From a virus: DNA of 64,000 nt. How positions within the stretch are numbered: the stretch's first letter is position 1; every line of letters begins with the position of its first letter. Positions 26,323-36,359 of the stretch are shown here, one piece after another. The position numbers and the translations under genes are program-made. The notes under the pieces were generated by a model that saw only the letters and a program-made list of their open reading frames with translations, was not told the origin of the DNA and searched no databases. The stretch is taken from positions 1-64,000 of IMG/VR virus record IMGVR_UViG_3300035670_000068, one strand, 5' to 3'.

Positions 26323-27591
26323 CTACAAAGAACGACCAGCGATAACAATTTGCTTGGTCGGGAACTCAAGCTCGATGGGATAACCCATCGCGTCAGTGAT
26401 GTGTTCCATACCAGCGGCCTTGTCGATATCGCGGGAACCCGCTTTGTAGAGCGTCTGTTCCAGGGACTCGATGACGTTGCGGCAGCCCTGCCCTACCAGC
26501 AGGCGCATGTTGCCATCGGCAGACTGCAGCATCCGGTTTACCGAGTTCACACGGTCGGCAACAAACGGGTGCTTCTTGCGATACTTGATCCGCTTGAAGC
26601 CCTTCTGCCGGAAGATATCCAGGTCAGACTCACCGCGAGCGTGCTGACGTGCGCCGCCTGCAGGGTCGGGATAGATCGTGATCTTGTCCATGTAGCGCCA
26701 ATACCGGCGCTCCAGTTCCTCGCACATTTCGGCCGTGTTGGAGTTGTGCAGGAACACCTCGTCCACGATCCAGAGCTGGCCGTTGGTTTGCGGCTGAATG
26801 ATCGCGGCGGACATGGGGTCGATGTTGAAGTCTACGCCTACCCAGATCGGCAGAGCCGGGTTGAACACGACCTTGCTGTGGACATGCTTGTGACGGTCGA
26901 ACGGGTAGTACACGCGACCGGACATGGTTTCGAAGCTAGCCTCGAACTCCTGGCGGAAGGTGCGCGGGTCCATATCGCGGCGAGCGTCGGCGATCTCTTC
27001 CTCGGGAATGAACGGCGAGGTGATCGTAGGGAACTGGTAGCTCGACCAGGCGGTGCGGCTGTCGTCCTGACCCAGCATGTACAGCTCGTAGAGCTGGTTG
27101 TATGCCTTTGGGGTGCCGATGAACAGCGCTTCACCGCGATCCTTCGCCAGCGTCGGTCGAATGATCGTTGTCCAGGTCTCGGTGCGAATGTCCTGGAACT
27201 CGTCCAGGACGACGAAGTTCAGACCCACACCGCGCAGTGTGTCCGGGTTGTCAGCGCCCTTACACTCGATGATCGTGCCGTTGGCCAGCGTGACCGACAT
27301 TTCGGTTTCGTGGATACGAACGATCCAGTCACGCGGAATCGACTCTTTGAGGTCGTTCCACATGATCTGCTTGGCCATGCGGTAGGTCGGAGCGATGTAC
27401 CAAATCTTCTGCTTGGGCGTTCTGGCCCTGGCGAGGATTTCGCTCTTCGAGAGGTTGGTCTTGCCCCAGCGGCGGCCGGCGACGACTACCCGGAAGCGGG
27501 CTGTGTCCAGAAAGACCTCGGCCTGCTTTGGGTGCAGGCCGGTTTCAATGTCGAACTTGGGCTTGAAGACCTTCGCTGGGCGAATCTTCAT
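26323..27591 (-). CDS. terL: Terminase large subunit
   Basis: 422 residues. ATPase domain with Walker A VVVAGRRWGKT near residue 36-46 and Walker B NFVVLDEFQD near 135. The nuclease domain has VGVDFNIDPMS (first Asp) near 255 and YPDPAGGARQH near 330 (catalytic Asp). Length and order fit the RNase H-type TerL family. ATG at 27591 overlaps the TerS stop by one base. It pumps DNA through the portal and cuts concatemers. Confidence 0.95.
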   Translation of the reverse strand: MKIRPAKVFKPKFDIETGLHPKQAEVFLDTARFRVVVAGRRWGKTNLSKSEILARARTPKQKIWYIAPTYRMAKQIMWNDLKESIPRDWIVRIHETEMSVTLANGTIIECKGADNPDTLRGVGLNFVVLDEFQDIRTETWTTIIRPTLAKDRGEALFIGTPKAYNQLYELYMLGQDDSRTAWSSYQFPTITSPFIPEEEIADARRDMDPRTFRQEFEASFETMSGRVYYPFDRHKHVHSKVVFNPALPIWVGVDFNIDPMSAAIIQPQTNGQLWIVDEVFLHNSNTAEMCEELERRYWRYMDKITIYPDPAGGARQHARGESDLDIFRQKGFKRIKYRKKHPFVADRVNSVNRMLQSADGNMRLLVGQGCRNVIESLEQTLYKAGSRDIDKAAGMEHITDAMGYPIELEFPTKQIVIAGRSL

Positions 27592-28274
27592 CAGGCGGCC
27601 TCTTCCGGCTCGCCCTCGACCAAGATTTCGTCCAGCTCTTCCAGCTCTTCTGGGGTGAGGCCTTCAAGCTCGTCATCGATCATTTCACCGGCAGCCTCTG
27701 CGGCTTCTCGACGCTGCTTCTCGCGAAGCTCCTTCACGTCTTCCTCGGTCATGATCTTGATGCGCAGTTCGGACAGCTCTTCGCCTTCATCCAGCTCGCG
27801 ATCCAGACCCAGGATGTTGGCCCCGGTCTGGTAGTTCTGCGAAATTATCTTGGATGCTTCGGAGATCGCCTTGAGGTCGGTCAGTCGCTCACCAACCGGC
27901 GTGCCGTCCTTGATCGCTTTGGCCACGTCTGCGTAGGCCTTGCGATTGAACAGGTCGATGGCCTTGAGGGCGTTCATCTTGAGATCGTGGGCGTAGCTCG
28001 CCAGCTCTTCCGCCTGGGCAGCCGCAGTTCTCTCAATGGACTTCTGAACGGCAGCAGCGGTCTTGTCCGCGAATGAGCCACGCTTCACGCCGTCTTTTTT
28101 GAACCGGCGCGACAAAGCCGTAGCGCTCACGCCCACGGCTTCTGAGATTTCGGAAAGCGAGTAGTCGCCGGACTGCCACATGGATTTGGCTTTGGCGTAC
28201 TCTCTCGGCGTCAGACGTTTACTGAGGGCCGGAGTGCTCGATTCTGCTGGGTTGGCTACGGTTTCGTCTGTCAT
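27591..28274 (-). CDS. terS: Terminase small subunit
   Basis: 227 residues. N-terminal helix-turn-helix of the terminase/homeodomain-like kind (LTPREYAKAKSMWQSGDYSL, SEISEAVGVSATALSRRFKK), then an oligomerisation coiled coil and an acidic C-terminal tail (EELDEILVEGEPEEAA). Directly upstream of TerL. The ATG at 28274 lacks any ribosome site because a terminator hairpin ends four bases before it; a TTG six codons earlier is no better. Translation may therefore be leaderless or depend on processing. Confidence 0.88.
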   Translation of the reverse strand: MTDETVANPAESSTPALSKRLTPREYAKAKSMWQSGDYSLSEISEAVGVSATALSRRFKKDGVKRGSFADKTAAAVQKSIERTAAAQAEELASYAHDLKMNALKAIDLFNRKAYADVAKAIKDGTPVGERLTDLKAISEASKIISQNYQTGANILGLDRELDEGEELSELRIKIMTEEDVKELREKQRREAAEAAGEMIDDELEGLTPEELEELDEILVEGEPEEAA

Positions 28275-28277
28275 CTG

Positions 28278-28299
28278 AAAAAAGGCGGGCAAGCCCGCC
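28278..28299 (-). terminator. Strong terminator abutting terS
   Basis: GGCGGGC-TT-GCCCGCC then TTTTTT on the minus strand; the terS ATG begins right after TTTTTTCAG. It should end transcripts of the upstream modification operon, unless antiterminated. Confidence 0.88.
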
Positions 28300-28370
28300 G
28301 AAGGAGAAAAACGCTGCCCGTGGAGTCGGCAACCGGACTACATTCTCCTATGACTTCCGGGTGGTGTCAA

Positions 28371-28388
28371 TAACTAACCAGTTAGTGT
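28371..28388. promoter_or_regulatory. Dispersed palindrome, copy 9
   Basis: ACTAAC-CA-GTTAGT core. On the minus strand TTGACA overlaps its edge, but the matching -10 region is poor. About 97 bases before terS. Confidence 0.55.
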
Positions 28389-28723
28389 GGTTGGAGGCTA
28401 CCGGAGTGAGCTAACCCCTTGATTTCTCCCGGCTTGTGTAAGGTTTTAGAAAATTTGCTTCCCAACGCCACGCTGCGTATATTTATAATACTTCTAACTA
28501 ATTAAATACTTACTATCCCTCTATCTCCCCCTATAGTCCCCCTCTTTCTCCCTTTCACGACGACCCATCTACCCGGCCCGCCGCGCTCATGAAAATTTCC
28601 AAGCTGCCCCTCGCCATTCACACCATAATCGCGTCCGGGAGCTTTGTCGCGCCCAGCTCGGTTAGCAAGTAACGAATCGGTTATTTGATAGCTCGGGAAC
28701 CCGTCTGGTTTCGCGTATAACGC

Positions 28724-28770
28724 ACGATCTCGCTCAAGACGACCCGATGTAGCGCCCAGAGCGAGATCGT
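28724..28770. repeat. 12-base inverted repeat
   Basis: Perfect arms of 12 separated by 23 bases, 21 bases after the stop of the winged-helix gene. No T-run. Could be a protein site, for example for terminase small subunit. Confidence 0.65.
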
Positions 28771-28791
28771 TCAACCAGCGCGAAAATAGAG

Positions 28792-29130
28792 CTATTCCAG
28801 AATCAGCTCCACCACGTCATCCTCCACCACTTCGCGGTAAGTCACCGGAGCGGGCTTGGATGCCGGGTTGAGGATTCTCTTGGCCACAGCCGTTGGCGCT
28901 ACTGTCTGCCTCGCCCGACCATCCCGGATTTCCTTGCCTTCGCGCTCGATCCACCCCTGGTTGACCAGGATTCGAATCGAGCACATCAGCGACTCGCGGG
29001 AGGTCTTGTACGGCAGCCGATCCAGAATCTGCTGGTAGTCGCACCAGCTGACCCAGGCGCCTTTCGCATCGATGTTGCCGGCCATGACGACTTTCATCAG
29101 GGCGGTCTGCTTTCTTGTGAGTGGCTTCAT
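28792..29130 (-). CDS. Winged-helix DNA-binding protein, 112 aa
   Basis: N-terminal winged helix: LTRKQTALMKVVMAG (helix 1), WVSWCDYQQILDRL (helix 2), TSRESLMCSIRILVNQGWIE (recognition helix and wing) and an Arg-rich wing EIRDGRARQTVAP. Last gene of the ParB/ABC/GNAT operon, ATG overlapping the upstream stop. It is the clearest regulator-like protein of the window and a candidate reader of the dispersed palindromes, though nothing ties it to them directly. Confidence 0.7.
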   Translation of the reverse strand: MKPLTRKQTALMKVVMAGNIDAKGAWVSWCDYQQILDRLPYKTSRESLMCSIRILVNQGWIEREGKEIRDGRARQTVAPTAVAKRILNPASKPAPVTYREVVEDDVVELILE

Positions 29131-30005
29131 AGCAAATCAAGCCTCAGAGGTTCGTTGGGTTTCTGGAAGTCGAAGGCTTTCAGTGGAAGTCGATCAGGCA
29201 GCTTCCGGCCCAGGTCAGGGTTCTGCCAAATCCCGTAGACCGGGCTTGCGAACACCAACTGCTGCAGCTCGCGGAGCAAGTGCGCCGGCTCCATTGCATC
29301 GACCTTGCCCGTGCCGACGTTCAGGTTCGATCCGGTTTTTTCGCGACTGGAGTGCCGGTAGTAAAACGCCCTCATCTCTTCAAGAGCCTTCTCGCAAAGA
29401 GCCGGTGGCATCTGGGCCAGTTCTTCCATGACAGCCTGGTGATCCGCAGGGTGAGCCTTGAACAGACTCCGCATGAATTTCAGACCCTTCTCGTAGGCCG
29501 CTGCGGATTTCAGGTGCGCGTGCTTGAAACCGGACTTGGTGTCGAAGGGGTTGAACTTGCTCATGGACGACTGGATTTCCACGAACTTGTAACCCTCCAT
29601 CCGCATGGCCAGGTTGACCATCCGGTAGCTCACGCCCACGCCTCGGTACATGGTGTCCGTGACGATCCGCGCCGCTCGACGGAAGTTCGCGTTCAGGTAT
29701 GTCGCTCGATGGACGTTGGTGAAGTGCGAGTCCTTGCCAGGCTTCAACTTGGGGAAGACCTGGTGTCGCGGAGCCAACAGCAGCGCAACCGAGCTCAGCA
29801 CCACCACGCCAACCAGGGAGTTATCCCGGTAGTTGACGCAGCGCCAGAAGTGCGGACCTGCAGGCAGGGTTTCCGCCTTGTAGTGGAGGTCGTGCAGCTC
29901 GTCCCAATCTGCCTTGGTTCCGCGCTCGACCCACATATCGTCCATCAGCGAAAACCGGGGCTTTGCGTCGTCCCTGCGTTCGATGATCAGGTCGTGGTCA
30001 GTCAC
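29127..30005 (-). CDS. Mom-like GNAT acyltransferase
   Basis: 292 residues from GTG 30005 (GGAG upstream, overlapping the previous stop). Features of the Mom/GNAT group: LHDLHYKAETLPAGPHFWRC with the His-Tyr of the active centre, strand LVGVVVLSSV, VHRATYLNANFRRAARIVTD as the linking helix, and YRGVGVSYRMV as the acetyl-CoA pyrophosphate loop (RxVGVS). FVEIQSSMSKFNPFDTKSGF then matches the last strand and helix. Mom of phage Mu adds an acyl-type group to adenine in DNA. The adjacent ABC ATPase reproduces, as two genes, the COG2401 fusion of an ABC ATPase with an acetyltransferase. Substrate unknown. Confidence 0.75.
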   Translation of the reverse strand: MTDHDLIIERRDDAKPRFSLMDDMWVERGTKADWDELHDLHYKAETLPAGPHFWRCVNYRDNSLVGVVVLSSVALLLAPRHQVFPKLKPGKDSHFTNVHRATYLNANFRRAARIVTDTMYRGVGVSYRMVNLAMRMEGYKFVEIQSSMSKFNPFDTKSGFKHAHLKSAAAYEKGLKFMRSLFKAHPADHQAVMEELAQMPPALCEKALEEMRAFYYRHSSREKTGSNLNVGTGKVDAMEPAHLLRELQQLVFASPVYGIWQNPDLGRKLPDRLPLKAFDFQKPNEPLRLDLL

Positions 30006-30318
30006 TGGAACCGCTCTCCGTCGGTTGCAGGCCCTTTTCCAGCTTTGCGACCAGACTCTTGAGACAGTCGATCGCCTCTTGATCACTGATCAAGTCACCG
30101 TCCATGAGCATCGCTTCACCGTCCACCGCGATCACGATCATGCGGTTCGGATCGCCGCCCTCACCGGCAGTCGAAACAGCCAGGTCAGCCATTGCTGCAG
30201 TCAGACCCTTGAAGTCTTCGTCCTTGTACGGGTTGTAAACCGGGGCTTCCTCACCCAGCTGCTCGCGGCCTTTCACCTTGCGGTTCTTGAAGTCCACACG
30301 AATCAGTTCACAGGTCAT
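29998..30318 (-). CDS. Small protein of modification operon, 106 aa
   Basis: Not recognised. Strand-rich N-terminus (CELIRVDFKNRKVKGREQL), middle PYKDEDFKGLTAAMADLAVS, and strand RMIVIAVDGEAMLMDGDLIS. No Cys pair or membrane segment. Sits between the ABC ATPase and the acyltransferase, overlapping both, so it is probably made in fixed ratio with them and may be an adaptor. Confidence 0.65.
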   Translation of the reverse strand: MTCELIRVDFKNRKVKGREQLGEEAPVYNPYKDEDFKGLTAAMADLAVSTAGEGGDPNRMIVIAVDGEAMLMDGDLISDQEAIDCLKSLVAKLEKGLQPTESGSSD

Positions 30319-30952
30319 TTCTTGTCACCATCATTTCGATCTTGTCCTTGAAGCGCTTCTCGACGTAGATCGTCGGCGCCAGCTCTTCCAGGAGGTCTTT
30401 GTGGGTAGTGGCCACGATCAGAGTCGCGCCACACTGTTTTGCGAATTTGCGGACGTTGAAGCCAACGACCTTGGCGGTTGTGCGATCCAGAACGGCGCCG
30501 AACTCGTCAGCGACCCAGACCTTGCAGCCGCTCTCCATGAGCTTCGCGACCCGGAAGCGGTAACGCTGGCCGTCAGACAGCTCGCTCGGCTTGCGGATGA
30601 ACAGGTAGGCGTCGTTCAAGCCGGCCAGGTTCAGGATGCGAATCGCCTCTTCGGTGGTCTTACCCACCTGGTCGATCAGCGGCACTTCCAGGAGCTCAAC
30701 CTTGTCGATATCAGCGACCGGCTGCTCTTCGGCGATCTGCTTGGCCAGCTCTTTCAGCAGCAGGGACTTGCCCGAGCCTGACTGGCCGGTGATGTAGATC
30801 ACGTCGCCCTGGCGAACATCGAGCATCAGGTCGTCGTAGACCGTGAACTCTTTGTCTTCCAGGCCCAGGCCGAACGCTTCTGCGCACTCCAAGACCCGCT
30901 GAGAGCGGGTCACGGTGGTCTTGAACGACTTGCGGATCAGGTAGCTGCTCAC
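30308..30952 (-). CDS. ABC-type ATPase of modification operon
   Basis: 214 residues, GTG start in a GTGA overlap. Walker A ITGQSGSGKSLLLKELA near 50-66, signature ELSDGQRYRFRVAK near 130, Walker B CKVWVADEFGAVLDR near 145-160, H-loop VATTHKDL. No membrane domain, so not a transporter; it belongs with soluble ABC ATPases such as those fused to acetyltransferases in COG2401. It may load or clamp the acyltransferase on DNA. The YRFRVAK after the signature is consistent with that group. Confidence 0.85.
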   Translation of the reverse strand: MSSYLIRKSFKTTVTRSQRVLECAEAFGLGLEDKEFTVYDDLMLDVRQGDVIYITGQSGSGKSLLLKELAKQIAEEQPVADIDKVELLEVPLIDQVGKTTEEAIRILNLAGLNDAYLFIRKPSELSDGQRYRFRVAKLMESGCKVWVADEFGAVLDRTTAKVVGFNVRKFAKQCGATLIVATTHKDLLEELAPTIYVEKRFKDKIEMMVTRNDL

Positions 30953-31641
30953 GCCTCACCCCCAGCGAACTGGCCGGCGAATACGGTCAGAGCCTCGGCA
31001 CCCTGCAGGCCTGTTTCAGCCTCGATGATCGCGACGAACTTCTTGACCAGGCGAGCCTGCTCGCTGGTGAAGCTGGCGAAGCCCAGGACTTTGCCGACCG
31101 GGACAGAAGACTTGTCGGACTGCTCGATCTCGGTGGCGGTGCGCTCGGTCTGCTCGATCACTTCTGCGGAAATGTCATCGCTCAGCGCGCCAAGGTCGAT
31201 CTCGCCCAGGTCGTCGATGGCGAAGTTCAGATCGCGCTCGTCGAAGAACTTGGACATATCGAAGTCCAGGTCCAGCACCAGCTCGCGCAGTTCCTCGGAC
31301 AGCAGGCCTGTGTCGTAACCGCCCTCTTGGACCTTGTTGTCGATCAGGCGGAGGGCTCGGGCTTGCTCCTTCGTGATGCCTTTCAGCACCAGCACCGGGA
31401 CTTCGCCCTTCGGGTCAATCGAGATCGCTGCCAGGCGGCGACCATGACCGGCGATGATCGTGCCGTCTTCTTCAACGACGATGCGGGTGATCCAGCCGTT
31501 CTGGCGAATCGACTCTGCGATCTTGGCCACCTGCTTGGGCTCATGCTTCTTGGCGTTCTTCTCATACGGAATGAGCCTGGACACCGACCAGGTTTCTTCG
31601 GAGCGGACGATGCCGCTGAAATCAGTCGAAGTGGTTGCCAT
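30949..31641 (-). CDS. ParB-fold protein B, 230 aa
   Basis: ParB/Srx-like N-terminal domain: LIPYEKNAKKHEPKQVAKIA, SIRQNGWITRIVVEEDGTII, AGHGRRLAAISI with the GHGR box that binds a nucleotide in ParB. The remainder is acidic and helical. Starts at ATG 31641 (three codons after an alternative TTG). Two different ParB-fold proteins in one operon with an ABC ATPase and a Mom-like enzyme suggest roles in DNA recognition or nucleotide handling for modification, not plasmid partition; there is no ParA. Confidence 0.85.
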   Translation of the reverse strand: MATTSTDFSGIVRSEETWSVSRLIPYEKNAKKHEPKQVAKIAESIRQNGWITRIVVEEDGTIIAGHGRRLAAISIDPKGEVPVLVLKGITKEQARALRLIDNKVQEGGYDTGLLSEELRELVLDLDFDMSKFFDERDLNFAIDDLGEIDLGALSDDISAEVIEQTERTATEIEQSDKSSVPVGKVLGFASFTSEQARLVKKFVAIIEAETGLQGAEALTVFAGQFAGGEA

Positions 31642-31798
31642 CAAAATCAAGTTCCATGCTGGTGAAGTCTTCGGTCGATTCCCAGGTCAGGTCACGATCC
31701 GGGTTCAGCGGGCGCACCCGCTCGGGCTTTTCCCGTTTCAGGCGCTCGCAGGCCTCTTCAACGGGGTTCAGTGCGATGTGAGGTCTTTCTTTCGGCAT
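31622..31798 (-). CDS. Small acidic protein, 58 aa
   Basis: Short open frame between the two ParB-fold genes, starting ATG 31798 and overlapping the second ParB gene by 20 bases. Sequence begins MPKERPHIALNPVEEACERL and ends MELDFDGNHFD; the amino-acid make-up and tight packing look like a real gene, but the ribosome site is weak because the palindrome lies just upstream. Confidence 0.55.
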   Translation of the reverse strand: MPKERPHIALNPVEEACERLKREKPERVRPLNPDRDLTWESTEDFTSMELDFDGNHFD

Positions 31799-31801
31799 AG
31801 G

Positions 31802-31817
31802 TAACTAACCGATTAGT
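31802..31817. promoter_or_regulatory. Dispersed palindrome, copy 10
   Basis: ACTAA-CCGA-TTAGT core, containing the TAA stop of ParB-fold protein A. It lies four bases before the start of the 58-residue gene. Confidence 0.55.
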
Positions 31818-32571
31818 GAGACGAAAGCAGAAGATGAACCAGCGCATCGCCGTCGTTGGTCATATCGTCGGACTCCATGAAGCCCTGCTCGGCGCGGACC
31901 TTCTTGACGATCTCGCCGATCTTGGCTGCGTCCTCAACCGACACGCGGAAGCGGATGATCTGGTGGGTTCGAGTTGCAGCACCAGCGCCCAGGTCGATGG
32001 CAGCGCCCTTCTCTTCCTCGTCGTCGCCCAGGATCGAGTCGATCTCGACCTCGACTTTCTCGGCGGTGAGGTGGGAGAAGTAGCCGGCCAGCTCTTCCTC
32101 GTCGATGGGCATGGTCATCAGCAGCTCTTCGGCGCTGCCGATCTCCGGGTCTTGCAGCAGCGCAGAGAAGCGCAGCGCGTCGTCGGAGCCGTAGCGGAAG
32201 TTGTCGATCAGAGTCTCGCGCTTGGCGTCGGCATCGCTGATCTTGCCGCGATTGATAACCGGCACTCGGTCGTAGCCCAGAGAGATAGCCGCCATCGTGC
32301 GGTGCTGGCCGCCGATGATTTCCAGGGAGCCGTCTTCCAGGGTGCGAACCACGATGGGCCGCTTGATCCCGTCTTTCTGGATCGATGCCTCCAGCTTGAG
32401 CTGGTTGATCGGGTCCACGATGTTCGGGTTCCAGGGGTTCGGACGCAGGTCTTTCGGGTTGACCTCTTCCACCTGCATATCGTTGTACGCCAGTGGCAGG
32501 TCAGCCGGGGTCAGACCACCCGAGTTCAGGAATGCGTCCAGGTCTTCCAGGTCAGAAAAATCAGTGTTCAT
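31813..32571 (-). CDS. ParB-fold protein A, 252 aa
   Basis: ParB/Srx domain at about 30-125: VNPKDLRPNPWNPNIVDPIN, LEASIQKDGIKRPIVVRTLE, EIIGGQHRTMAAISLG with the GQHR box. The C-terminal half is acidic with a short beta segment (THQIIRFRVSVEDAAKIGEI). First gene of the operon, divergent from the helicase across an 80-base region with palindrome copy 11. Shares fold but little sequence with protein B, so the two probably have distinct tasks. Confidence 0.87.
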   Translation of the reverse strand: MNTDFSDLEDLDAFLNSGGLTPADLPLAYNDMQVEEVNPKDLRPNPWNPNIVDPINQLKLEASIQKDGIKRPIVVRTLEDGSLEIIGGQHRTMAAISLGYDRVPVINRGKISDADAKRETLIDNFRYGSDDALRFSALLQDPEIGSAEELLMTMPIDEEELAGYFSHLTAEKVEVEIDSILGDDEEEKGAAIDLGAGAATRTHQIIRFRVSVEDAAKIGEIVKKVRAEQGFMESDDMTNDGDALVHLLLSSH

Positions 32572-32651: not shown

Positions 32652-34343
32652 ATGTCCAAATTCGTCAAGATTGTGTTCAACCCGGTCATCGCAGCCCTGG
32701 TTGAGCCAGATCGTGATGCCAAGCTCCTGGTCAACGATCTTCTGACCTACAAGATCGAGACCGGCATGAAGGGCATGGGCGTAGCTCACGGCTCGATGTT
32801 CGATATGAACAAGTGCCGTTTCCCGACAGGCTTCGTTCGCCTGGTCACGAAGAAGCTCGAAGGCGCCGGGTATCGTGTGCAGGTGGTTGGTAAGCCCGCT
32901 CCTGAACCTGCAGGCCCGTCCAACCCGGTTGTTGACTCGAACGCGCCGGACCCGCGCTACGACTATCAAGAAGAGACGATGAATCGTCTGGTCGTGCTCA
33001 AGCGCATGATTGCCCAGATCGCAACGGGCGGCGGTAAGTCTCGCACGTTCAAGCTGTGCTGCGAGCGCATCGCCCTCCCCACTCTGTTCCTGACCACTCG
33101 CAAGTCGCTGATGTACCAGATGGCTGCCGGCTATCGAACTGTGAAGTCTGGCCGCCCCGTTGGATTTATCGGTGACGGCCACTGGAAGCCCGAGCCGACC
33201 GGCGTGAACTTCGCCATCGTCGATACCCTGGTTTCTCGTCTTGAGGTCTGCTCTTTCGAGAGCGAGCTGGACAAGGCCGTCACCAAGCACGTCGAGGCGG
33301 TCGAGAAAGAAGTCCAGGCCGCGCTCAAGCGATTCAAGCTGCCGACGAACCCATCGACTCTGCGTCACGCCGACAAGGACACTCTGGCCAAGATCGCCAG
33401 CGTGAGATCGCGCGTGGAGCTTGCGAAGAAGCTCGACGAGAAGGCTCTTCAGGAGAAGATCAAGCGTAAGGTCGAAAAGCAGCAGGCTATTCGCGAAGAA
33501 ACTCTGCAGTTTCTGGCTCAGGTCGGATTCTTGTGCCTCGAAGAAGCGCACGAAGTCTCCGGTCAGGGCTTCTTCGATCTCTGCAACTCGATGCCGAACG
33601 CCCACTACCGCCTGGCTCTGACCGCAACCCCATTCATGAAGGACAGCGAAGAGGCTAATCTGCGCCTCATGGCGGTCACTGGAACGATCGGCATCAAGGT
33701 CAGCGAGAAAGACCTGATCGACCGGGGCATCTTGGCCAAGCCTTACTTCATGATCATGCCGTCGAAGCGCCCAGATGGAGTTTTGCGGGGAACCGCTTGG
33801 CAGGCCGCCTACGAACGCGGAATCGTCTCCAACACGGGCCGCAACATGCAGATCGTCCAGGCTGTTCAGATGGCCCGGCGTTATGGTCTGACCGCGATCA
33901 TCCTGGTGCAGCGAACCAAGCACGGCGAAGAGCTCAAGACCCTACTCAGCAACATCGGCGCTCGAACCGACTTCATCTACGGCGAGAACGAGCAGTCTGA
34001 GCGTCAGGCCGCCCTGGACAAGCTCGGCGCCGGCGAGATCGATGTGCTGATCGGCACCACAATTCTCGACGTTGGTGTGGACTGCCCATCTGTCGGCATG
34101 GTGATTCTCGCCGGTGGCGGCAAAGCAGAAGTGGCTCAGCGCCAGCGAATCGGTCGCGGCCTGCGTGCGAAGAAGTCCGGCCCCAACGTCTGCTTTGTGG
34201 TCGACTTCGACGATGTGTGGAACAACCACACTCACGGCCACTCGGTCGAGCGTCGCAGGATTATCGAATCGACGCCTGGGTTCGCCGAGAACATCGTCCC
34301 CTACTTCGATTTCGAAGGATTGGGCTTCAAGAGAGCCGCCTAA
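32652..34343 (+). CDS. SF2 helicase, UvsW-like
   Basis: 563 residues. N-terminal domain of 110 residues, then the helicase core: motif I QIATGGGKS near 120, motif Ia LFLTTRKSL, motif II LEEAHE (Glu in place of the first Asp of DEAH), motif III LALTATPF, motif V IGTTILDVGVDCP and motif VI QRIGRGLR. A charged coiled-coil insert of about 90 residues separates motifs Ia and II. Such helicases remodel forks and recombination structures (T4 UvsW is the model). First gene of the plus-strand unit; a terminator follows. Confidence 0.92.
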   Translation: MSKFVKIVFNPVIAALVEPDRDAKLLVNDLLTYKIETGMKGMGVAHGSMFDMNKCRFPTGFVRLVTKKLEGAGYRVQVVGKPAPEPAGPSNPVVDSNAPDPRYDYQEETMNRLVVLKRMIAQIATGGGKSRTFKLCCERIALPTLFLTTRKSLMYQMAAGYRTVKSGRPVGFIGDGHWKPEPTGVNFAIVDTLVSRLEVCSFESELDKAVTKHVEAVEKEVQAALKRFKLPTNPSTLRHADKDTLAKIASVRSRVELAKKLDEKALQEKIKRKVEKQQAIREETLQFLAQVGFLCLEEAHEVSGQGFFDLCNSMPNAHYRLALTATPFMKDSEEANLRLMAVTGTIGIKVSEKDLIDRGILAKPYFMIMPSKRPDGVLRGTAWQAAYERGIVSNTGRNMQIVQAVQMARRYGLTAIILVQRTKHGEELKTLLSNIGARTDFIYGENEQSERQAALDKLGAGEIDVLIGTTILDVGVDCPSVGMVILAGGGKAEVAQRQRIGRGLRAKKSGPNVCFVVDFDDVWNNHTHGHSVERRRIIESTPGFAENIVPYFDFEGLGFKRAA

Positions 34344-35840: not shown

Positions 35841-35917
35841 TGGTGCGTAGCTCAGTTGGTAGTAGCAGGTGACTGTTAATCACCAGGTCGAAGGTTCGAG
35901 CCCTTCCGCACCAGCCA
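35841..35917 (+). tRNA. tRNA-Asn (GTT)
   Basis: Acceptor TGGTGCG/CGCACCA, anticodon arm GGTGA-CTGTTAA-TCACC with anticodon GTT, T arm GAAGG-TTCGAGC-CCTTC, discriminator G and encoded CCA. The D arm is slightly irregular. Confidence 0.92.
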
Positions 35918-35929
35918 GTTTGTTTTTGC

Positions 35930-36006
35930 CGGCGCATAGCTCAACTGGACAGAGCATCGGGCTTCTATCCCGTTGGTTGTAGGTTCGAGTCCTACTGCGT
36001 CGGCCA
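35930..36006 (+). tRNA. tRNA-Arg (TCT)
   Basis: Acceptor CGGCGCA/TGCGTCG, anticodon loop CTTCTAT with anticodon TCT, T arm GTAGG-TTCGAGT-CCTAC, encoded CCA. Reads AGA/AGG, rare codons in GC-rich hosts. Confidence 0.92.
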
Positions 36007-36027
36007 CTTGAGATAGAGAGGTTGAAG

Positions 36028-36210
36028 ATGGAAGTGTTGTCTGGCGGTATCGCCACTCTGATGAACGCGCACGACGCCTATAGCGTCAACGCCCCGATTC
36101 ACGAAGCGGAAGGCAATCATGAGCAGGCTCAGTTCTGCCGCGATATGGCTGCCGACCTGCAGCTTTCCATCGTTGCTCTCAAGATGGTTCAGAGTTCCGA
36201 GCCGGTATAG
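36028..36210 (+). CDS. Small protein inside tRNA cluster, 60 aa
   Basis: ATG 36028 with GAGAGG upstream. Short helical protein (HEAEGNHEQAQFCRDMAADL) without recognised family. Its TAG stop is formed by bases 8-10 of tRNA-Thr, so the gene ends within the tRNA; processing of that tRNA would cut the mRNA's 3' end. Confidence 0.65.
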   Translation: MEVLSGGIATLMNAHDAYSVNAPIHEAEGNHEQAQFCRDMAADLQLSIVALKMVQSSEPV

Positions 36211-36276
36211 CTCAGTTGGTAGAGCAGCTGCTTTGTAAGCAGAGGGTCGTGGGTTCGAAACCTACTGCCGGCACCA
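36201..36276 (+). tRNA. tRNA-Thr (TGT)
   Basis: Acceptor GCCGGTA/TGCCGGC, anticodon loop TTTGTAA with anticodon TGT, T arm GTGGG-TTCGAAA-CCTAC, encoded CCA. Overlaps the end of the 60-residue gene by ten bases. Confidence 0.92.
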
Positions 36277-36283
36277 GAGCAAT

Positions 36284-36359
36284 GCGTAGGTAGCTCAAAT
36301 GGGAGAGCGACGGATTCCAAATCCGTTGGTTGGTGGTTCGACTCCATCCCTGCGCGCCA
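36284..36359 (+). tRNA. tRNA-Trp (CCA)
   Basis: Acceptor GCGTAGG/CCTGCGC, anticodon loop TTCCAAA with anticodon CCA, T arm GGTGG-TTCGACT-CCATC, discriminator G as usual for Trp, encoded CCA. Confidence 0.9.

What the first reader, a model, noticed from the sequence alone, without database searches (positions are those of the whole stretch)
28792..32571. ParB + ParB + ABC ATPase + Mom-like acyltransferase: a probable DNA-modification operon
Six coupled genes: two distinct ParB-fold proteins (GQHR and GHGR boxes), a soluble ABC ATPase, a small unknown protein, a Mom-like GNAT with HY and RGVGVS motifs, and a winged-helix protein. Mom of phage Mu is a GNAT-fold enzyme that modifies adenine in DNA, and ABC ATPase-acetyltransferase fusions (COG2401) exist in archaea and phages. 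Here the fusion partners are separate and joined to two ParB proteins but no ParA, so the job is probably site recognition and DNA modification protecting against restriction. The chemistry is unknown.
Basis: partly seen in the sequence, partly recalled or inferred. Interest (0 to 1): 0.82.

Follow-up and report, generated by a model that had tools for sequence, protein, structure and literature searches.

The report
Phage ParB-ATPase-acyltransferase DNA-tagging operon
A family of phage-plasmids carries, right beside its DNA-packaging genes, a fixed set of genes (two ParB-type DNA-handling proteins, an ATPase and an acyl-group transferase) that probably attaches a chemical tag to the phage's own DNA; the tag is unknown and has never been tested.

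Summary
The operon is real and almost as described: ParB, ParB, ABC ATPase, small protein, GNAT, small DNA-binding-like protein, in that order, with overlapping genes. It lies in a 110-kb phage-plasmid related to Pseudomonas nickie phages and SSU5. The order is conserved in IMG/VR relatives, always between an SF2 helicase and the terminase, and it is core: the same 30 phage records hold the GNAT, the ABC protein and a closely related terminase. The ABC and GNAT proteins are homologous to ABC-GNAT fusion proteins of unrelated phages (Leptospira LE4, Pasteurella, Streptococcus, Lactococcus P335, Gordonia), where a ParB gene usually lies directly upstream and a terminase downstream. The ParB2 domain is otherwise found fused to DNA methyltransferases, which can occupy the same slot. 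The GNAT model has the GNAT fold and an intact acyl-CoA motif. It resembles Mu Mom no more than other GNATs do and is not a Mom-family member by sequence. The phage has a separate ParA-ParB pair elsewhere, so partition is unlikely. Best reading: ParB-targeted, ATP-driven acylation of phage DNA. ABC-GNAT DNA modification was predicted before (Iyer 2013, cited in PMC7824862) and is untested. A packaging or protein-acylation role is the main rival.

The parts
31813..32571 (-). ParB1: ParB N-domain protein, GQHR box (phrog_723)
   Evidence: Pfam ParB_N E 2e-12; phrog_723 E 4e-54; first gene of the operon in relatives
31622..31798 (-). 58-aa ORF between the two ParB genes, no family; a similar-sized ORF is annotated at this place in Rhizobium phage N1_15
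30949..31650 (-). ParB2: ParB/Noc-type nucleotide-binding N-domain with invariant GHGR, plus a helical C-terminal part; its relatives are mostly ParB-DNA methyltransferase fusions
   Evidence: phrog_930 E 3e-73, phrog_498 (DNA methyltransferase) E 3e-32; GHGR 100% of 81; model vs Noc 7ng0 Z 14.8 over 92 residues
30308..30952 (-). soluble ABC-type ATPase with intact Walker A, signature, Walker B and H-loop; homologous to the ABC half of phage ABC-GNAT fusions
   Evidence: hhalign E 1e-26 vs fusion
29998..30318 (-). 106-aa protein of unknown family between ABC and GNAT
   Evidence: no hits in Pfam or PHROGs
29127..30005 (-). GNAT-fold acyltransferase (phrog_886), H41-Y42-K43 and R121-x-x-G124-x-S126 motifs (numbering of the 292-aa form); GTG start at 30005 likely (ORF extends to 30086)
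28792..29130 (-). 112-aa protein (phrog_900), possible winged-helix DNA-binding protein
   Evidence: phrog_900 E 4e-13, O-like initiator E 0.002; same place in relatives
28293..28791 (.). gap between the operon and TerS; in relatives this gap holds a dyad and, in SSU5 and Cyrano, the record ends (likely cos)
   Evidence: the dyad is weaker in this window
27591..28292 (-). probable small terminase subunit (phrog_867, HTH)
   Evidence: syntenic with annotated TerS in Cyrano
26323..27591 (-). large terminase subunit
   Evidence: 81% identical to annotated large terminases of Nickievirus
32652..34343 (+). divergent SF2 (UvsW-like) helicase that bounds the operon

Best explanation
A phage DNA-modification module. 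Inferred mechanism: the ParB proteins bind phage DNA (as nucleotide-switched clamps or as nucleotide-binding target-recognition domains) and recruit the ABC ATPase with the GNAT. The ATPase uses ATP to open, move along or license the DNA, and the GNAT transfers an acyl group from an acyl-CoA onto an exocyclic amine of a base (adenine or cytosine). This happens before or during packaging, so virion DNA is protected from host nucleases. Shown here: the gene set, its conservation and core status; the homology to ABC-GNAT fusions; the GNAT fold and intact CoA motif; the intact ATPase motifs; the ParB/Noc-type fold of ParB2; and the ParB-methyltransferase parallel. Inferred: that DNA is the substrate, the chemistry, the role of ATP, and the anti-restriction purpose.
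For: GNAT fold (model pLDDT 88.6; Z up to 11.7; Mu Mom 8bv8 Z 11.5 over 173 residues; the RNA cytidine acetyltransferases TmcA and NAT10 among the Foldseek hits). Canonical acyl-CoA motif conserved in 88 homologues. The same 30 records hold GNAT and ABC. ABC homologous to the ABC half of fusions (E 1e-26) and GNAT to the GNAT half (95.9%, E 6e-9). In 160 fusion loci a ParB lies directly upstream in 102 of 149 assessable. ParB2's outside relatives are mainly ParB-DNA methyltransferase fusions, and in MW202748 such a fusion takes the same place before TerS-TerL (TerL downstream in 19 of 50 loci). No N6/N4, D12 or C5 DNA methyltransferase in this genome. ABC-GNAT was earlier predicted to acylate a DNA base (PMC7824862).
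Against: No chemical or restriction data were found for any carrier phage. Most GNATs modify proteins or small molecules, and the fold match to Mom is not better than to those. The module is strictly core and tied to the terminase, unlike many accessory modification genes; terminase adjacency is more frequent (88 of 114 assessable) than for ParB-methyltransferase fusions (19 of 50), which favours a packaging link.
Confidence: 0.6

Rival explanations
1. Packaging module: the ParB proteins and ABC ATPase load on the DNA near the genome end (cos) and, with the GNAT acylating terminase, a capsid protein or a host factor, control when and where packaging starts.
For: The operon is always directly upstream of TerS-TerL in this supergroup; fusion relatives have TerL within 6 kb downstream in 88 of 114 assessable loci; the likely cos lies between the last operon gene and TerS; cassette and TerL distances correlate (Mantel r 0.77-0.82, 0 of 500 permutations); core in 30 of 30 records.
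Against: Some carriers have the fusion with no ParB and away from terminase (VmeM-32, P12024S, Komp_PAO1_1). ParB-methyltransferases, plain DNA modifiers, can sit in the same place. TerL relatives at 43% identity or below lack this GNAT, so this type of terminase does not need it.
Confidence: 0.22
2. Partition or plasmid maintenance of the phage-plasmid prophage by the operon's ParB proteins.
For: ParB-type folds; the carriers B1VFA and V1VFA-S are described as phage-plasmid-like with parA, parB and repC (PMC12509600).
Against: This genome has a separate ParA (93803-94300) followed by its own ParB (94873-95139); the operon has no ParA; ParB2 is nearest to methyltransferase-linked ParB domains.
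Confidence: 0.05
3. Host take-over: the GNAT acylates a host protein (for example RNA polymerase or a defence protein), with ParB and ABC as partners.
For: Phage GNATs such as phiKMV Rac act on RNA polymerase (PMC7824862); generic GNAT fold matches are as good as Mom.
Against: Obligate link to two DNA-handling ParB proteins and an ABC ATPase, and the ParB-methyltransferase parallel.
Confidence: 0.1

Closest known systems
Phage ABC ATPase-GNAT fusion (COG2401/MK0520-type annotation, phrog_11143), predicted DNA acyl-modification system (Iyer et al. 2013, cited in PMC7824862)
   Same: Homologous ABC and GNAT domains with the same order of motifs (HY, then [Q/R]xxGx[G/A/S]); ParB usually directly upstream and terminase downstream
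   Different: Here ABC and GNAT are separate genes with a small protein between them, there are two ParB genes and an extra phrog_900 protein; the GNAT is longer (292 aa) with a helical C-terminal extension; core in the whole phage supergroup
Mom of phage Mu (methylcarbamoylase mom, 8bv8)
   Same: GNAT fold, HY motif, phage-encoded
   Different: No significant profile similarity; canonical CoA motif present here; Mom has no ParB or ABC partners in Mu
ParB-DNA methyltransferase fusions of phages (phrog_498)
   Same: ParB2-type domain with a DNA-modifying enzyme, can lie just before TerS-TerL
   Different: Methyltransferase instead of ABC and GNAT, no ATPase
TmcA/NAT10 RNA cytidine acetyltransferases
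   Same: ATPase coupled to a GNAT that acetylates a nucleobase amine (established for TmcA/NAT10; Foldseek hits)
   Different: Helicase-type ATPase rather than ABC, RNA substrate; only a distant fold match

Membership tests
GNAT acyltransferase superfamily | GNAT fold | tested here: met
   Model pLDDT 88.6; best PDB matches are all GNATs, Z up to 11.7
GNAT acyltransferase superfamily | acyl-CoA motif (Q/R)-x-x-G-x-(G/A) | tested here: met
   R121-G-V-G124-V-S126 with S/A/G at the last place across homologues
Mom family | sequence-profile similarity to Mom homologues | tested here: not met
   hhalign probability 2-5%
Mom family | conserved SFAD and YQAxNF motifs of Mom | tested here: not met
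   Mom alignment against GNAT alignment: IQSSMSKFNPF at the likely equivalent place
Mom family | methylcarbamoyl adenine in DNA | not testable with these tools
   needs LC-MS of virion DNA
ABC-GNAT predicted DNA-modification system | homologous ABC ATPase with intact catalytic motifs | tested here: met
ABC-GNAT predicted DNA-modification system | homologous GNAT domain | tested here: met
   hhalign 95.9%, E 6e-9
ABC-GNAT predicted DNA-modification system | ABC and GNAT in one polypeptide (usual, but not in P335 or Oenococcus members) | tested here: not met
   separate genes here; also separate in P335 and Oenococcus phages
ABC-GNAT predicted DNA-modification system | acylated base in DNA | not testable with these tools
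   never shown for any member found in the papers searched
ParABS partition | adjacent ParA | tested here: not met
   none in the operon; ParA plus another ParB at 94 kb
ParB nucleotide-binding (CTPase) fold | ParB/Noc N-domain fold with GxxR box | tested here: met
   ParB2 model vs Noc and ParB Z 13-14.8; GHGR invariant
ParB nucleotide-binding (CTPase) fold | CTP binding or hydrolysis | not testable with these tools
   needs biochemistry

The most novel reading that the evidence does not exclude
A widespread class of phage DNA modification in which ParB clamps, loaded from sites near the genome end, recruit an ABC ATPase and a GNAT that acylates bases along the DNA just before packaging, giving a new acylated nucleobase and coupling modification to packaging.
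Probability: 0.25. Interest if true: 0.9.

Novelty: new variant of a known kind. Interest (0 to 1): 0.62.

Why it matters
If right, a whole supergroup of phage-plasmids (SSU5-like, Nickievirus, Rhizobium and Stenotrophomonas phages) and many unrelated phages carry an unknown DNA hypermodification that nobody has looked for, and it can be tested in phages already in laboratories. It would also give a role to ParB proteins outside partition, as recruiters of DNA-modifying enzymes next to the packaging machine, and might explain why these genes are annotated as 'ABC transporter' and 'partition protein' although they are probably neither.

Tried and rejected
Mom-family membership: rejected by profile comparison, despite a tied fold match. 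Relation to Tenacibaculum pT24 gene 39: no similarity; the real pT24 relatives are its split ABC-GNAT genes 37/38. Partition: rejected because of the separate ParA-ParB pair. A second modification system in this genome: no N6_N4, C5 or D12 methyltransferase. Literature: Iyer 2013 (gkt573, PMC3763556) and the D6/SSU5 comparison (virol.2017.12.019) are not held, so I could not check whether ParB or terminase linkage was already reported there. PMC11780129 concerns other phages. No restriction or modification data for Nickievirus or B1VFA in the papers read. Mom as a neighbourhood control failed: the alignment was too divergent to scan with, and the single-protein scan returned only close copies of Mu Mom.
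Full report
WHAT IS THERE. The window is part of a 110,316-base virus record. On the - strand, 32571 to 28792, lie ParB1, a 58-aa ORF, ParB2, an ABC-type ATPase, a 106-aa protein, a GNAT-fold protein and a 112-aa phrog_900 protein. Coordinates overlap by a few to about 30 bases at every junction except the one after ParB1 (14-base gap), as in a coupled operon. It is bounded by a divergent SF2 helicase (32652-34343, +) and by TerS (27591-28292) and TerL (26323-27591). Pfam finds ParB_N in ParB1 (2e-12) and weakly in ParB2 (0.0011, below cut-off), and ABC_tran in the ATPase (3e-12); the GNAT is not recognised by Pfam or NCBIfam but matches phrog_886 at 8e-127. PHROGs calls phrog_886 'ABC transporter ATP-binding subunit', which looks like a misnomer inherited from the COG2401 name ('ABC-type ATPase fused to a predicted acetyltransferase'); that name is written out in the Cyrano and Klebsiella records.

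CONSERVATION. tblastn of the GNAT finds 30 phage records (27 distinct genomes, since nickie, SSU5 and RHEph10 are each listed twice): Pseudomonas, Rhizobium, Stenotrophomonas, Salmonella SSU5, Escherichia and Klebsiella; raising E to 10 with the SSU5 protein finds no further record. The ABC protein has the same 30 records at 80% coverage or more, and TerL at 56% identity or more gives the same 30, with the next TerL at 43%. The operon is therefore core to the group. In IMG/VR 231 places encode a relative of the GNAT; in the 80 fetched the order helicase(-) ParB1 ParB2 ABC GNAT HTH TerS TerL recurs, with gaps mostly where contigs end. GNAT, ABC and ParB2 distances correlate with TerL (Mantel r 0.77-0.82, no permutation of 500 reaching it), consistent with vertical descent together.

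THE PROTEINS. In 88 GNATs the H-Y-K motif, R-G-x-G, Y-R, E and several N/S/K residues are (nearly) invariant. R121-x-x-G124-x-[S/A/G] is the canonical acyl-CoA motif. The AlphaFold model (pLDDT 88.6) is a GNAT fold with an extra helical C-terminal part; PDB matches are GNATs (Z 11.7 down), with Mu Mom 8bv8 fourth at Z 11.5 and the longest alignment (173 residues, rmsd 4.5), tied with ordinary GNATs. Foldseek also lists TmcA and NAT10, which acetylate cytidine in RNA, and a Salmonella phage Mom. Profile comparison with Mom is not significant. The ABC protein keeps Walker A GQSGSGKS, SDGQ, ADE and the H-loop in nearly all of 85 sequences; no gene in the operon is annotated as a permease, so 'transporter' is unlikely. 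The ParB2 model has the ParB/Noc N-domain (Noc 7ng0 Z 14.8 over 92 residues, rmsd 1.4).

RELATIVES ELSEWHERE. The ABC protein's only other phage relatives at E 1e-5 are ABC-GNAT proteins: Leptospira LE3/LE4 gp15, annotated as GNAT, and a Vibrio phage protein. LE4 gp15 is an ABC-GNAT fusion, preceded by a ParB gene and followed, after three small genes, by TerL and portal. tblastn with it finds 75 phage records. Its ABC half matches ours at E 1e-26 and its GNAT half at E 6e-9, 95.9%. Gene neighbourhoods: ParB, ABC-GNAT, then TerS/TerL in Pasteurella Pmp13, Streptococcus Javan141 and Gordonia Axumite (genes 1, 2 and 4); in Lactococcus P335 and Oenococcus Vinitor-27 the ABC and GNAT parts are separate ORFs. 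In 160 further loci (80 viral, 80 GTDB genomes) ParB is directly upstream in 102 of 149 assessable and TerL lies within 6 kb downstream on the same strand in 88 of 114. These 160 are the best-scoring matches, related to each other, so the fractions are not independent counts. Without ParB upstream: Vibrio VmeM-32, Nonlabens P12024S and Komp_PAO1_1.

THE METHYLTRANSFERASE PARALLEL. ParB2 matches the ParB part of phrog_498 (ParB-DNA methyltransferase) over 149 residues at 3e-32, and most of its distant phage relatives are annotated as DNA modification methylases. Some of these annotations are on short ParB-only genes, as in Javan141. In MW202748 a real ParB-methyltransferase fusion is followed by a DNA-binding protein, terminase and portal; 19 of 50 assessable relatives have TerL downstream, a lower bound because TerL detection is imperfect. 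So a ParB domain appears with two different enzymes, a methyltransferase or ABC plus GNAT, in the same kind of place. This is the main argument that the GNAT acts on DNA; it is circumstantial.

PARTITION IS UNLIKELY. The genome has a ParA (93803-94300) followed by its own ParB (94873-95139), outside the window. The phage is probably a phage-plasmid, like B1VFA and V1VFA-S, reported as phage-plasmid-like with parA, parB and repC.

PACKAGING RIVAL. In SSU5 and Cyrano the records end at the same point between the last operon gene and TerS, inside a dyad that shuffles rarely match in SSU5, a Klebsiella phage, B1VFA and N1_15 (0 to 3 of 200), but more often in Cyrano, hairong and the window. If these are the real ends, the operon is at the right end of virion DNA, next to cos. 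Terminase adjacency is more frequent for ABC-GNAT than for ParB-methyltransferases, so a packaging-linked role, or modification timed with packaging, cannot be excluded.

KNOWN OR NEW. PMC7824862 states that a GNAT coupled with an ABC ATPase was earlier predicted to carry out an uncharacterised acyl modification of a DNA base (Iyer et al. 2013), and names pT24; the pT24 genes are phrog_11143 members. The idea is therefore not new. I could not read the 2013 paper, so ParB and terminase linkage may already be described there. New as far as I could see: the two-ParB, split version as a strict core gene set of a phage-plasmid supergroup, the quantified ParB-ABC-GNAT-terminase linkage, and the separate partition genes. 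No experiment on any member was found.

Noticed in passing
window 28293-28791; SSU5 and Cyrano record ends (L003 1-62, L389 1-133, L005 8162-8223, L390 1-134): A dyad-symmetric AT-centred element between the operon and TerS; SSU5 and Cyrano records end at the same point inside it, so it is probably the cos site.
   Followed up: partly
G000:C1 93803-95139 (outside the window): A ParA and its own ParB: the phage is probably a phage-plasmid.
   Followed up: partly
window 35841-36359: Four tRNA genes (Asn, Arg, Thr, Trp) close to the helicase end of the operon.
   Followed up: no
L110 3785-5514 (Pseudomonas phage Komp_PAO1_1): An ABC-GNAT gene after tail-fibre genes, followed by a gene annotated as phosphoribosylglycinamide formyltransferase; a formyl-transfer partner would hint at the acyl chemistry.
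   Followed up: no
L108 1805-2452 (Gordonia phage Axumite): A gene annotated as tRNA-methyltransferase lies between ABC-GNAT and terminase.
   Followed up: no
L105 4001-5061 and L107 3716-4770: In Oenococcus and Lactococcus P335 phages the ABC-GNAT protein is split into overlapping ORFs, with the GNAT ORF starting just after the HY position; the P335 ABC ORF lacks a visible HHYL, so the split may be a frameshift or decay.
   Followed up: partly
GTDB loci L191-L270: ABC-GNAT loci are common in contigs of Planctomycetes and Nonomuraea genomes, many with ParB and TerL, suggesting unrecognised prophages.
   Followed up: no
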